IMG/VR virus record: IMGVR_UViG_3300034682_000252
Location: 1-64,000 of that record
From: a virus
Reading direction: 5' to 3' (one strand)
DNA length: 64,000 bases
In this document: positions 31,530-55,592 of the stretch, piece by piece
Layout of the letters: each line of letters opens with the position of its first letter
Numbering within the stretch: position 1 is the first letter of the stretch
Notes under the pieces: generated by a model
What the model was told of the DNA's origin: nothing
Databases searched by the model: none
What the model saw: the letters and a program-made list of their open reading frames with translations, nothing else
Position numbers and translations under genes: made by a program

Positions 31530-32651
31530 CTACCGTTTTCCAGCCCTACGGCGGGCCATGGCCGATTCGCCGGCCAGAATGTCACGGCAATAGCGGATCA
31601 CCATGCGCTCACTGGTCCAGCGGCCGGCCTGCATGATCTCCAGAGTGTTGTATCCCTCGGCTGCCAGATCCTGGGAGGCGCCCACCCGGGCGGAGTGCCC
31701 AGACCAGCGCGGGATACCCAGGCGCTCGAGATCCAGCTCCATCCACGCCTTGGCGAAGATCTTCTCTACCGTATCCACCGACAGCGGGCCGCCAGCATAG
31801 GCCGGCTTGTTGTGCTTGGTGACCTTGCCGAACAGTTGATCGCCCCCCTCCAGCTTGCGGCCGGCCGCCTCCAGGTACTCCAGGATCAGCCGCATAGCCT
31901 GGCGCGACAGCGGCGCTTTGTCCGGTTCGCCTGAGTGGTTCGTCTTGGTGATGGGGATGGTCAGCACGGCGGTCCCGTCGGGATTGAGCTTGATGTGCTG
32001 GCAGCGAATACGGGCCACCTCGGACGCCCGCAGCAGCGTTTCATAGGCCACTACCAGGAGCGCCAGATCCCGCTTGCGCACCAGGAACGGGGATTGCCCC
32101 CACAGCTCCACCAGGTTATCGAGGTGAACCTCCCGCAGCGCGGAGGCCTGGTCGATCGTCTCCTCGGCCTTCACCTTGGCCCGCACCAGGGCGGCAAAGG
32201 TCCCCTGTAGCCGCTCGTCGGTGGTCGGGTCCGGGCAGCCGGCCGCCCGGTGAACCCGCCCAATGGCCCAGCGGTCAATCGCCAGGGTGTTGCGGTGGAC
32301 GCTGGTGGCCCGCTCGGTCAAGTAGGCTTCCACGTCGGCCACGTCGGCCGGAAGCGGTGACCGGTCACCAGAACTGGCGCACCAGGCCGCGAACCGGGAC
32401 CAGGCGCCGGTGAGGGATTCAATGGTCCGCTCGGAGTAGCGGCCGGCCCGCACCTGGAATTCCTCCAGGAACTGGGCGATGGCCTCCTGGATGCGCGGGT
32501 GTCGGTCGATGCGATGGCCATGCAGGCGAGCGCGGCGGATCAGCTCGCCCAAGTCGCTCGGGGTGAAGGCGTCGAGATCGAGTTGGTCGATAGTGGCGGT
32601 GAGTTCGGCCGGTAACATCTTGTCGCCGGCGAAGATGGCAAGTTGAGTCAT
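31530..32651 (-). CDS. cre: Cre-like tyrosine site-specific recombinase
   Basis: 373 residues (30 longer at the N-terminus than P1 Cre). The N-terminal domain (residues 60-160) and the catalytic domain align by pattern to Cre: YETLLRASEVARIR holds Arg208, TKTNHSG holds Lys236, WSGHSARVG holds His319 and Arg322, GRWTSERMVIRY holds Trp345 and Tyr354. Spacings Arg322-Trp345 (23) and Trp345-Tyr354 (9) equal those of Cre (292-315-324). A lox-like palindrome lies 56 bp upstream of the start. It should circularise redundant ends and resolve plasmid dimers. Confidence 0.9.
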   Translation of the reverse strand: MTQLAIFAGDKMLPAELTATIDQLDLDAFTPSDLGELIRRARLHGHRIDRHPRIQEAIAQFLEEFQVRAGRYSERTIESLTGAWSRFAAWCASSGDRSPLPADVADVEAYLTERATSVHRNTLAIDRWAIGRVHRAAGCPDPTTDERLQGTFAALVRAKVKAEETIDQASALREVHLDNLVELWGQSPFLVRKRDLALLVVAYETLLRASEVARIRCQHIKLNPDGTAVLTIPITKTNHSGEPDKAPLSRQAMRLILEYLEAAGRKLEGGDQLFGKVTKHNKPAYAGGPLSVDTVEKIFAKAWMELDLERLGIPRWSGHSARVGASQDLAAEGYNTLEIMQAGRWTSERMVIRYCRDILAGESAMARRRAGKR

Positions 32652-32689
32652 GGGAAAGGGTCTTTTCTAGTTGTTTGGGCGCGTCGGTG

Positions 32690-32706: not shown

Positions 32707-32742
32707 ATCAATTCGGAATAATTGTCATTAGTCCGAATTGAT
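32707..32742. other. lox-like recombination site
   Basis: A 36-bp element with 14-bp arms ATCAATTCGGAATA and TAGTCCGAATTGAT, matching at 13 of 14 positions as inverted repeats, around an asymmetric 8-bp spacer ATTGTCAT. This is the layout of loxP (13-bp arms, 8-bp core), with a different sequence, next to the cre-like gene. Confidence 0.7.
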
Positions 32743-33696: not shown

Positions 33697-33726
33697 TTGA
33701 ACAGTCCTTTTGTGAGCTACTATGAT
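33697..33726 (+). promoter_or_regulatory. Promoter of the 33775-34614 gene
   Basis: TTGAAC (33697) and TATGAT (33721) are separated by 18 bases. This promoter overlaps an upstream TTG that could be mistaken for a start. Confidence 0.65.
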
Positions 33727-33774
33727 GGCACCAATTATTTAAACCCCCCCGTAAAAGAGAAGGCGGTCAACGTT

Positions 33775-34614
33775 ATGGCAGTAGATATTTCCCGGTACGA
33801 AAAGTTCTTGGAAGTCCGCAATAACGCAACAAAAATAATTCAGCGTCATTCTATTCACCACGAATTGAAAGGCGATGACGAGAGCGGGCACTATTCAAAA
33901 TTGGATGGCGGCAAGGCAAGTGACACCCTGCCACCCACAGAGAGCGCACGTAATAAAAATGATGATGCCGAGCAAAATATTACAGTGCGCCACGTTGGCG
34001 TTATTACAGATAAGGATGAATTACTTAATTTAAATCAATTTATTCAGCAGTGGCAGAATATGGCCAATGAATTAACCAAGGCTGACCCGCTCCGTTTCCC
34101 AAAGAATGCTGCCGTATTAGCACCGGTCCCCAGTATTATTTATGGTGTCCGCGCTATGTCAATTAGTGTTGGGCCAGCGACCACCAGCAAGAAATTTACC
34201 AAGCAAAGCATTCTGACCCGGTACGACAAAGCCATCAAAAAGGCGCTCCAGAGCGAGCGGGTGAGCCATAACAGCGCACTACGCCTCCAGCTCGAGCGAG
34301 AGCGGGCGTTATTGGTCGCGGACAGCGAAACCCACTACCGGATCCGCAATACATGCGGAACAGAGACAGTTTGCACCGTGACATATAACGACGGCACCAC
34401 GGACAAGGTGAGAGTCCCCCATGTTGGAGTGGCTTTTGCGGCCCCGTTTGGAGGCATTGAGATTAGAAAGCCGCGTGTAATGCGCCCTCGATCAGACCGT
34501 TTGGAGCTGATGGGCATTGAGCCGCTGGATTGTTCCCTGTCTGGCCTGTCTGGCTTTGTTTACCGCGAATCAGAGGTAATTACAGCAAGGGGGCGTCACG
34601 CACGGCGGAAATAA
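33775..34614 (+). CDS. Unknown cargo protein
   Basis: 279 residues from ATG 33775. Start chosen because the promoter at 33697-33726 lies upstream and GAAGG precedes it. Central parts: NLNQFIQQWQNMANELTKADP, then AVLAPVPSIIYGVRAMSISVGP, and GGIEIRKPRVMRPRSDR. Base composition is AT-richer than late genes. No known domain. It is probably a lysogenic-conversion or defence gene because it has its own promoter between cre and terminase. Confidence 0.55.
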   Translation: MAVDISRYEKFLEVRNNATKIIQRHSIHHELKGDDESGHYSKLDGGKASDTLPPTESARNKNDDAEQNITVRHVGVITDKDELLNLNQFIQQWQNMANELTKADPLRFPKNAAVLAPVPSIIYGVRAMSISVGPATTSKKFTKQSILTRYDKAIKKALQSERVSHNSALRLQLERERALLVADSETHYRIRNTCGTETVCTVTYNDGTTDKVRVPHVGVAFAAPFGGIEIRKPRVMRPRSDRLELMGIEPLDCSLSGLSGFVYRESEVITARGRHARRK

Positions 34615-34649: not shown

Positions 34650-36155
34650 TTAGACGTCCTCCGCCACCAGCGCCTGCGCCCATCCTGCCAATGATTCTCG
34701 CTCAGCCACCATATCCGATGTAATGAGCATATTCGCCGGGATGTAGTCGGCCATCATGCTGAAACAGTAGGTATCCCACCGGTCGGGTGAGGGTAAGCCA
34801 AGTTTCTGCCGCATCGTCTCCTTGGGCATCATGCAGTTCTGACCCAGCTCGTTGAGCCTGCAGGGCATACGAGAGGCCTGGTCGAGGGTCTTTTCGTGCC
34901 CATCGAGGCGCATACGGCCGCTTCTCACCGCATCCCGGGCCATGATGTTGGCAAAGGCCCGTTTGTTGATGAAGCGCTTCTTATCCTCCTGGGAGAAGCA
35001 CGGTTGCCCCCACCGAATACGGATAACCTGGCGGCCGGCCTCTTCCAGGATCGTGGCTGTATCAGCCCCTACGCCGTCGCCATCCACAGCAAAGGTCACG
35101 TTGGGATACTGCTCGTTGGGGTACTCCGTGTTGAGCAGGCGGCCGTAATTCACCGGGTCGATAGTGCCGGCCCACTCCTTCACGCTCACTGGCACCACTC
35201 GCCGCTCGAATCGCTCCCCACTCACCCGCACCAGGTTGGCCACCGAGCTATCCCGGCCGTTCCCCACGTCCACCAGCACCAGCCAGCCCCAGCCTTTCGC
35301 CAGCTTGGGCTGGGCCCTGGTGGCCTTCTCGCAGTCATCCCGGGAGAGCAGGTATTCCGACGACGTGCGCGGGAACTCGCCCCGCACCTTGATCATGTAC
35401 TCGGGCGCGTCGCGGCTGCCGCCGTACTCGCGGATCTTGGACCGGATGAATGAGAGCTTTACCAGGGGGGACTGCTCAGAGCTCAACTTGATGGCCGTGT
35501 ACCCGTCCTTGTCACCGGGGTGGCGCTTCTTGAGCTTGTGGTGCGTATCGTAGAAGTAGCCGCTGGGGCGCGTTGGCTGGCTCAGGAGGAGGATCCGGTT
35601 GTCCTCCTCGGTCAGGGCACCGGTCATGACCCCGAACGCCTTGTCAGAGACGCCAGAGGCCTCGTCCACGATGTAGAACAGGTGCGCGGCGTGTTCGCCG
35701 GCGAGGGATTCCTCATTGCCGATACGGCAACCCTTGGGGGAGACGAACCAAACGCCCTTGCTGGACCGCTCGAAGAAGGTGGTTTCGGTCAGGACGAAGT
35801 ATTGCTCTACCCAGGGGTGACGCCGGCACAGCTCGCGATAGTTGATCTTGAGGTACTTCCAGACCACCGTCTGCACCTGGCTTATCTTGTTCGCCACCAC
35901 AATGACGCGAGCGCCCGGGAAGCAGAGCATGAAGATCAGGATCATGATGGATGTCATGTCAGACTTGCCGGTACCGTGACCAGAGGAGACGGAGGTTTTG
36001 GCCCCTGTCTCCTGGGCAGAGTCCAGGATCAGGGCCTGCTGCCAGGTCGGTTCCTTGCCGAACAGCTCCACGGCGGCCGTGGTCCAGTCATAGCGGTACC
36101 GCTTCACCAGGTCGAGGTAACGGGGGTCCTTGGTTATCGAGCGGATACGCCCCAT
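34650..36155 (-). CDS. pacB: Terminase large subunit (P1 PacB-like)
   Basis: 501 residues, close to P1 PacB. Walker A SSGHGTGKSDMTS near residue 60, Walker B LFYIVDEAS near residue 160, coupling motif with GALTEEDNRILLLSQP, and a C-terminal nuclease domain with AVDGDGVGADTA (catalytic Asp) and INKRAFANIMARD. Directly adjacent to the pacA gene (1-base overlap). It translocates and cuts DNA during headful packaging. Confidence 0.9.
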   Translation of the reverse strand: MGRIRSITKDPRYLDLVKRYRYDWTTAAVELFGKEPTWQQALILDSAQETGAKTSVSSGHGTGKSDMTSIMILIFMLCFPGARVIVVANKISQVQTVVWKYLKINYRELCRRHPWVEQYFVLTETTFFERSSKGVWFVSPKGCRIGNEESLAGEHAAHLFYIVDEASGVSDKAFGVMTGALTEEDNRILLLSQPTRPSGYFYDTHHKLKKRHPGDKDGYTAIKLSSEQSPLVKLSFIRSKIREYGGSRDAPEYMIKVRGEFPRTSSEYLLSRDDCEKATRAQPKLAKGWGWLVLVDVGNGRDSSVANLVRVSGERFERRVVPVSVKEWAGTIDPVNYGRLLNTEYPNEQYPNVTFAVDGDGVGADTATILEEAGRQVIRIRWGQPCFSQEDKKRFINKRAFANIMARDAVRSGRMRLDGHEKTLDQASRMPCRLNELGQNCMMPKETMRQKLGLPSPDRWDTYCFSMMADYIPANMLITSDMVAERESLAGWAQALVAEDV

Positions 36156-37573
36156 TACTCGGCCTCCCAGGATTCTTCATCCCAGTCGCCCGGTTGCGGG
36201 TCGTCATCGAGCGGAAGCGCATCGTCAGGGTGCCAACTGCCATCGTCGCCGGCGAGGATAAGCTCCCCCTCCTGGGCGTCTTTCTTAAAGGCCGCCTCTC
36301 CCAGCAGCTCGCCAGCCTGGTGCGCGGCCTCCTCGGCGATGATGCCCGAAATCTCCTCGTTGCGACCTGACAACCACTCCCCAGTCTGGACGCGCATCTT
36401 CTCCCGGTACGCCCTGGACTCTCGCTCCAACTCCTCTTCGGTGATGCCGCTACCCTGCTCGGCCCGGGGCTCCAGCCACGAGATTTCCTTGATCATTTCG
36501 GCATGGAGGGCATCCGGCAGATCGATACCCTCCCGGTTGAACAGGGTGGCCGTCTCGATGGCGGTCAGGCCTTCCTGGTTGCGGAGCTCCAGCAGCTCGG
36601 CCGTGCGGGCGATACGCTGGGCCAGGGAGAGGGGGTGGCGGCTCCACTCAGCCAGGGCCAGCTTGCGGCGCTCAAGCTCCAGCTTTTCACTGTCCATTGC
36701 GAGCTTGATGTAGGTGGCTTTCTGGCGGTGTATCGACTTCTCAAGTTCGGTGATGGGCTGGCTAGTCCCAAACTCTACTTGCATCAGCGCCTGCTCTTTG
36801 GGCATGGCGGCGCCGTTGTCATCGAGCCAGGGGCCACCCTTGCTGTAGTCCTTGCGGATCTTCTGCAGCGCCTCGCCCCGGGTTTTATACATGCCAGCCA
36901 GGCGGGCCCGGGCGAGTGTCAGCTCGTCGTCTGCATACTCATCCGAGGAAACCATCTCCAGCACCTCGGGATCAATCCCGAACTGGGAGGCATACCGCCC
37001 AAGCAGGACGTTACGGGCGCCGCCGCGCCGGTTTTTTGGGCGCGTCGGCGTTTGATCCTCAGAATTTCCCAGGTACTCGCCGACCACCACGCTCTCGCCT
37101 GCGCCCTCCCCCCTGGCCTGATCTGATCTACCCCCCTTTTTCGCTGCACCCCGCGTCGCGGCTGGCTTTGCGCTCCCTGCCGCTCGCTTTCGCTGCTGAT
37201 CAGGCGATGTGCTCCCGCTCGATGTAATAGGTTGATCAGCGGCCCTCCCACCACCTGATCTGATCACATGATCAGGCCCTCCCTTGGCATCCTTGGCCGC
37301 CTTCTCCTCGCGCTTCTCGGTGACCATCTTGCGCACTTCCCGGCGCACCACCTTACCCATTTTCAGGCCGGCGCCCTGGGCCCCCTCGGCGGTCGCCCTG
37401 GCCGCTGCCCCCTTGGCCTCCAGGGCAGCCGCGACCGCAGCCCCCATCGAGCGGCGGGCCGAATTTCTGTTCAAATCATTGGCAAGGGCGTACTCCACCA
37501 GACTCATAGAGTCGGCGAAGTGATCAACGTAGTTGTTGATATGGAATTGCCAGTCGAAAGTTGCCTTTGCCAA
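36155..37573 (-). CDS. pacA: Terminase small subunit (P1 PacA-like) with internal pac
   Basis: 472 residues. N-terminal helix-turn-helix YALANDLNRNSARR follows the PacA pattern (NLNPNTARR in P1). A charged linker holds PDHVIRSGG and SDQARGEG, encoded by GATC hexamers (pac, codons about 100-151). The middle third is helical with ELEKSIHRQKATYIKLAMDSEK, and the C-terminus is acidic. It would recognise pac DNA. Longer than P1 PacA (about 400). Confidence 0.82.
   Translation of the reverse strand: MAKATFDWQFHINNYVDHFADSMSLVEYALANDLNRNSARRSMGAAVAAALEAKGAAARATAEGAQGAGLKMGKVVRREVRKMVTEKREEKAAKDAKGGPDHVIRSGGGRAADQPITSSGSTSPDQQRKRAAGSAKPAATRGAAKKGGRSDQARGEGAGESVVVGEYLGNSEDQTPTRPKNRRGGARNVLLGRYASQFGIDPEVLEMVSSDEYADDELTLARARLAGMYKTRGEALQKIRKDYSKGGPWLDDNGAAMPKEQALMQVEFGTSQPITELEKSIHRQKATYIKLAMDSEKLELERRKLALAEWSRHPLSLAQRIARTAELLELRNQEGLTAIETATLFNREGIDLPDALHAEMIKEISWLEPRAEQGSGITEEELERESRAYREKMRVQTGEWLSGRNEEISGIIAEEAAHQAGELLGEAAFKKDAQEGELILAGDDGSWHPDDALPLDDDPQPGDWDEESWEAE
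37119..37274. other. pac-like packaging site, seven GATC hexamers
   Basis: Seven TGATC(A/T) hexamers lie in 156 bp: 37119, 37124, 37197, 37233, 37256, 37261 and 37269. P1 pac is about 162 bp inside pacA with seven TGATC(A/G) hexamers in two groups, cut only when Dam methylated. The size, number, and location in the linker after the N-terminal HTH agree. Three more hexamers lie nearby (37521, 37589, 37652). Confidence 0.75.
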
Positions 37574-55567: not shown

Positions 55568-55592
55568 TACCAAAACCGACGCGCCAAAAAAA

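What the first reader, a model, noticed from the sequence alone, without database searches (positions are those of the whole stretch)
32707..32742. A lox-like site with a new sequence beside a Cre-like recombinase
The 36-bp element has near-perfect 14-bp inverted arms and an asymmetric 8-bp spacer (ATTGTCAT), next to a Cre-family gene that keeps all catalytic residues with Cre spacing. Known lox variants used with Cre-type enzymes are few. The arm sequence here is unlike loxP. The cre -10 box abuts the site, so binding could autoregulate. Seen: sequence and spacing. Inferred: it is the recombination site.
Basis: partly seen in the sequence, partly recalled or inferred. Interest (0 to 1): 0.85.

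Follow-up and report, generated by a model that had tools for sequence, protein, structure and literature searches.

The report
New lox site of a P1-like phage-plasmid
This short DNA palindrome is almost certainly the recombination site of the Cre-like enzyme encoded beside it in a P1-like phage-plasmid; its sequence matches no known lox site checked here, but it works in a well-known way.

Summary
Window 32708-32741 is a 34-bp lox-type element: 13-bp inverted arms (12 of 13 paired) around the asymmetric spacer ATTGTCAT, 56 bp upstream of a Cre-like tyrosine recombinase (31530-32651, minus strand) with all seven Cre catalytic residues. Chance is excluded (1 of 5000 shuffles). In 72,556 plasmid records the full site occurs only in the four that carry this recombinase, once per record. 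The same scan recovers loxP and rox at their annotated positions, and VloxP at VCre of p0908. The locus has the P1/D6 order pacA-pacB-C1-lox-cre, about 4.5 kb from a GATC cluster like P1's pac. Best reading: a single-copy lox site for circularising redundant virion DNA and resolving plasmid dimers. The half-site TCAATTCGGANTA is new among sites I could check, but shares TCAATT and 7 of 8 spacer bases with VloxP. The "-10 box abuts the site" autoregulation claim is weak. New member of a known kind.

The parts
32708..32741 (-). 34-bp lox-type site; in cre orientation TCAATTCGGACTA-ATGACAAT-TATTCCGAATTGA
32708..32720 (+). left arm / half-site TCAATTCGGAATA
32721..32728 (+). asymmetric 8-bp spacer ATTGTCAT
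32729..32741 (-). right arm / half-site TCAATTCGGACTA
31530..32651 (-). Cre-like tyrosine recombinase, 373 aa
33697..34614 (+). C1-like repressor homologue (27% identity to D6 C1 over 197 aa); the likely start is the internal ATG that begins MAVDISRYEK, as in the A. salmonicida relative
34650..36155 (-). PacB terminase large subunit homologue (55-57% identity to P1 and D6 PacB)
36155..37573 (-). PacA terminase small subunit homologue; GATC cluster at gene nt 301-451 suggests a pac site near 37.1-37.3 kb
32675..32688 (-). 14-nt block ACCGACGCGCCCAA between lox and the cre start, conserved in all five close relatives; role unknown

Best explanation
The element is the core recombination site (lox) of the adjacent Cre-type recombinase in a P1/D6-like phage-plasmid. 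Two recombinase monomers bind the two 13-bp arms, two such sites pair, and strands are exchanged across the 8-bp spacer. The genome holds one copy, so its substrates are two copies made by terminal redundancy of headful-packaged virion DNA (circularisation on entry) and by plasmid dimers (resolution to monomers). Shown here: sequence, conservation, exclusivity to genomes with this recombinase, synteny, catalytic residues, single copy. Inferred: binding, cleavage, recombination and the two biological roles.
For: Palindrome beyond chance. In five close relatives the 34 bp is 31-34/34 identical to the window while the 80 upstream alignment columns are 28-33/80. Among 72,556 plasmids the full site is found only in the four records with 78-97% identical recombinases, and in 2.9 million viral contigs only in the one with an 80% identical recombinase. 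Single copy in the window's 91-kb record and in five relatives. A lox-type palindrome (10/13 pairs or more) was found upstream of 27 of 30 recombinase genes examined, among them annotated loxP and rox, and VloxP and vox as I know them. Half-site similarity tracks recombinase similarity: Mantel r 0.63, 0/5000; dereplicated r 0.30, 8/5000. Gene order pacA-pacB-c1-lox-cre and spacing as in P1 (loxP 4.0 kb from pac) and D6. GATC cluster in the pacA homologue. Published predictions by the same criteria for Nigri/nox and Panto/pox recombined when tested (PMC4957104).
Against: No biochemical or genetic test. The site in pASP-135 is imperfect (10/13 pairs) although its gene is 91% identical. For three of the 30 homologues the scan found no convincing site, so a nearby site is not universal. 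Its place upstream of the gene leaves an additional operator role possible.
Confidence: 0.93

Rival explanations
1. The palindrome is mainly an operator for a repressor of cre or of the divergent 32986+ gene, not a recombination site.
For: It lies in the intergenic region 56 bp upstream of cre; a -10-like hexamer lies 11 bp away.
Against: Arm and spacer lengths equal those of known lox sites; in homologues the site sits anywhere from 15 to about 700 bp upstream, which does not suit a promoter operator. The asymmetric spacer is conserved across the family. Single copy, unlike P1 C1 operators, which are many.
Confidence: 0.04
2. The site works as lox and, when occupied by the recombinase, also represses cre. 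This is an add-on to the best explanation and not exclusive with it.
For: The right arm covers the position where a -35 would lie for the TATACT hexamer.
Against: No promoter passing a loose consensus was found there; the -10-like hexamer is not conserved in position in the Leclercia and pASP-135 relatives.
Confidence: 0.25
3. The site is an attachment site for integration into the host chromosome rather than a resolution and circularisation site.
For: The protein belongs to the phage integrase family in Pfam.
Against: Four relatives are circular plasmids; the window carries ParM- and Rep3-like genes. The site is a simple palindrome as in Cre systems.
Confidence: 0.03

Closest known systems
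VCre/VloxP of Vibrio plasmid p0908
   Same: Protein 46% identical over 359 aa; half-site begins TCAATT; spacer ACTGTCAT versus ATTGTCAT (7/8); site upstream of the gene in a P1-like phage-plasmid (PMC4132613)
   Different: Inner half-site CGGANTA instead of TCTGAGA or TCCGAGA; spacer runs the other way relative to the gene; 56 bp instead of 434 bp from the gene
Dre/rox of phage D6
   Same: Order pacB - c1 (opposite strand) - site - recombinase; same site architecture
   Different: Protein about 29% identical in the alignment; half-site ATAACTTTAAATA
Cre/loxP of phage P1
   Same: Catalytic residues, site architecture, pacA-pacB-c1-lox-cre order, about 4-4.5 kb between pac and lox
   Different: 30% identity; half-sites 50% alike; specificity residues K43 and R259 are E78 and D293 here
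Vika/vox, SCre/SloxP, Nigri/nox, Panto/pox
   Same: Same kind: Cre-like recombinase with a nearby 34-bp site (PMC4957104)
   Different: Other arm sequences for vox; SloxP, nox and pox were not compared base by base here
Cre-type systems of Jelicic et al. 2023 (doi 10.1093/nar/gkad366)
   Same: Same class, by title
   Different: Paper not held, so I cannot exclude that this clade was among them

Membership tests
Cre-type (P1-like) site-specific recombination system | Tyrosine recombinase with the Cre catalytic residues | tested here: met
   All seven residues aligned; PDB Cre hit E=3.5e-33
Cre-type (P1-like) site-specific recombination system | 34-bp site: two 13-bp inverted arms, asymmetric 8-bp spacer, intergenic near the gene | tested here: met
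   criteria of PMC4957104
Cre-type (P1-like) site-specific recombination system | Site conserved with the recombinase gene across relatives | tested here: met
Cre-type (P1-like) site-specific recombination system | P1 hallmark gene cluster around the locus | tested here: met
   PacA, PacB, C1-like homologues in P1/D6 order
Cre-type (P1-like) site-specific recombination system | Recombines two copies of the site without accessory factors | not testable with these tools
   needs an excision assay
VCre/VloxP system | Same target site | tested here: not met
   half-site identity 58%; the inner part differs
XerC/XerD recombinases | XerC or XerD equivalog score above the curated cut-off | tested here: not met
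   XerC 27 bits versus cut-off 335

The most novel reading that the evidence does not exclude
The recombinase has its own site specificity, orthogonal to Cre, Dre, VCre and Vika, read partly by acidic residues (E78 and D293, at Cre K43 and R259) that occur at these two positions only in this clade among those aligned. In addition, the spacers of Cre-type sites are not free but keep a shared core AT[TG]ACAGT across enzymes with different arms, which would point to a constraint on strand-exchange order.
Probability: 0.45. Interest if true: 0.5.

Novelty: new member of a known kind. Interest (0 to 1): 0.4.

Why it matters
Validated Cre-type enzyme-site pairs are few and each new orthogonal pair is useful for genome engineering. 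Here both partners and a natural series of relatives with graded site divergence are available, which makes site specificity directly testable. The family-wide spacer bias also gives a testable statement about why natural lox spacers look alike.

Tried and rejected
Second lox copy or array in the genome: none in 91 kb at up to 3 mismatches. SloxP, recalled from memory, in the Shewanella ANA-3 locus: not found there, so it was not used as a control. Consensus promoter at the site: none. C1 homologue among phage records by tblastn: none at 1e-5, so that homology rests on the direct comparison with D6 C1. Viral and genome scans gave only one viral contig and one truncated gene in Aeromonas rivuli as close relatives. 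The papers describing VCre and Vika are not held.

Full report
What is there. It is the only 13+8+13 palindrome with 12 or more pairs in the 64-kb window; other 600-bp pieces reach 11 pairs in 2 of 105 cases and never 12. A palindrome as good arose in 1 of 5000 dinucleotide shuffles of the 400 bp upstream of the gene. The window lies in a 91,016-base virus record, and the site is single-copy there at up to 3 mismatches.

The enzyme. The gene at 31530-32651 (minus strand) encodes 373 aa. It matches solved Cre structures at E=3.5e-33 and Pfam Phage_integrase. XerC and XerD models score far below their cut-offs. R208, E211, K236, H319, R322, W345 and Y354 align with the Cre catalytic residues. 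Named relatives are VCre of p0908 (46%), Cre (30%) and Dre (29%).

Relatives keep the site. Four plasmid records carry 97, 91, 80 and 78% identical recombinases, and one viral contig 80%. All five have the site at a similar place, 56-102 bp from the gene. Against the window the 34 bp is 34, 31, 31, 31 and 32 identical, whereas of the 80 alignment columns upstream only 28-33 are identical. Searching the site itself in 72,556 plasmids found just those four records plus two weak partial matches. A scan of the viral contigs found just that contig. Each relative has one copy. A further relative, in Aeromonas rivuli, is only a truncated 3' end of the gene, and its locus has no site.

Controls and family picture. 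The same palindrome scan upstream of 30 homologous genes finds a lox-type site in 27 with 10 or more pairs; two of those with only 10 pairs (L013, L004) are not significant on symmetry alone. It recovers loxP and rox where the records annotate them. It also finds, at the VCre gene of p0908 and in V. coralliilyticus, sequences that I know as VloxP and vox. Three genes gave nothing. Half-site similarity follows recombinase similarity (Mantel r 0.63, none of 5000 permutations; 20 dereplicated systems r 0.30, 8 of 5000). Part of this is shared ancestry, so it supports but does not prove recognition.

Specificity. The half-site TCAATTCGGANTA shares its outer six bases with VloxP and differs in most of the inner seven. 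At positions K43 and R259 of Cre, shown by swap experiments to help set site choice (PMC4957104), this clade alone has E and D among 30 aligned proteins. Orthogonality to VloxP is therefore likely but untested.

Genome context and mechanism. On the strand of cre the order is PacA homologue (36155-37573), PacB homologue (34650-36155, 55-57% identical to P1 and D6 PacB), C1-like gene on the opposite strand (33697-34614), lox, cre. D6 has pacB-c1-rox-dre and P1 has pacA-pacB-c1-loxP-cre, with pac cut at 90.8 kb and loxP at 94.8 kb, 4.0 kb apart. P1 pac lies in pacA among GATC motifs; the homologue here has a GATC cluster at gene nt 301-451, about 4.5 kb from lox. The window also has tail sheath, T4-like portal, ParM and Rep3-like genes. 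This is the layout in which headful packaging from pac can leave lox in the terminal repeat, so that one recombination circularises the incoming DNA. That role, and plasmid multimer resolution, are known for P1 (multimer resolution: PMC10999674; circularisation: my own knowledge) and are inferred here.

The autoregulation remark. The TATACT hexamer is 11 bp from the element, does not abut it, and has no acceptable -35; the promoter scan reports nothing there. The hexamer is not kept in place in the more distant relatives. Possible, but unsupported.

A wider pattern. Turned to one direction, 20 dereplicated spacers share AT[TG]ACAGT: A at position 1 and T at position 2 in 20/20, C at position 5 in 16/20. 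Mean pairwise identity is 0.68 against 0.52 in shuffles that hold positions 1, 2 and 8 fixed (0 of 2000 as high). Spacers are more alike than arms in 143 of 190 pairs, with the caution that choosing the better of two orientations inflates the raw number. Direction relative to the gene is mixed.

Verdict. The finding is right in substance: a genuine lox-type site, of a sequence not matching any published site I could compare, with its recombinase. It is a new member of a well-described kind. One paper that might already contain this clade (doi 10.1093/nar/gkad366) was not available.

Noticed in passing
window 32675-32688 (minus strand); L003, L004, L005, L006, L032 upstream of the recombinase: The block ACCGACGCGCC[CT]AA between lox and the gene start is conserved in the window and all five close relatives while the surrounding sequence changes; copies with one mismatch lie at 37036-37049 and 55575-55588.
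   Followed up: partly
20 Cre-type loci, spacers of the lox-type sites: Spacers share the core AT[TG]ACAGT across enzymes with different arm sequences, in either direction relative to the gene.
   Followed up: yes
window 36155-37573, gene nt 301-451: GATC cluster in the PacA homologue resembling that of the P1 pac site.
   Followed up: partly
L033 5900-6240 (Aeromonas rivuli DSM 22539): Truncated 3' end (about 80 aa, 95% identical) of the same recombinase, with no lox site in the locus: a decayed remnant.
   Followed up: partly
L006 and L008 (pM17-63, pASP-135): Relatives of this phage-plasmid carry resistance genes (tet(D), blaSHV-12) beside IS26 close to the recombinase locus.
   Followed up: no
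L012 (Aeromonas hydrophila YURI 17 plasmid, 87 kb): A related phage-plasmid with terminase and a 55% identical recombinase has a different lox-type site, TTAATGTCTGATA-ATTACAGT-TATTCGACATTAA.
   Followed up: partly
L009, L010, L011, L013-L017, L020, L023, L024, L026-L028: Lox-type palindromes, apparently unnamed, upstream of further Cre-like genes on Aeromonas, Vibrio, Photobacterium and Shewanella plasmids, several with perfect arms.
   Followed up: partly
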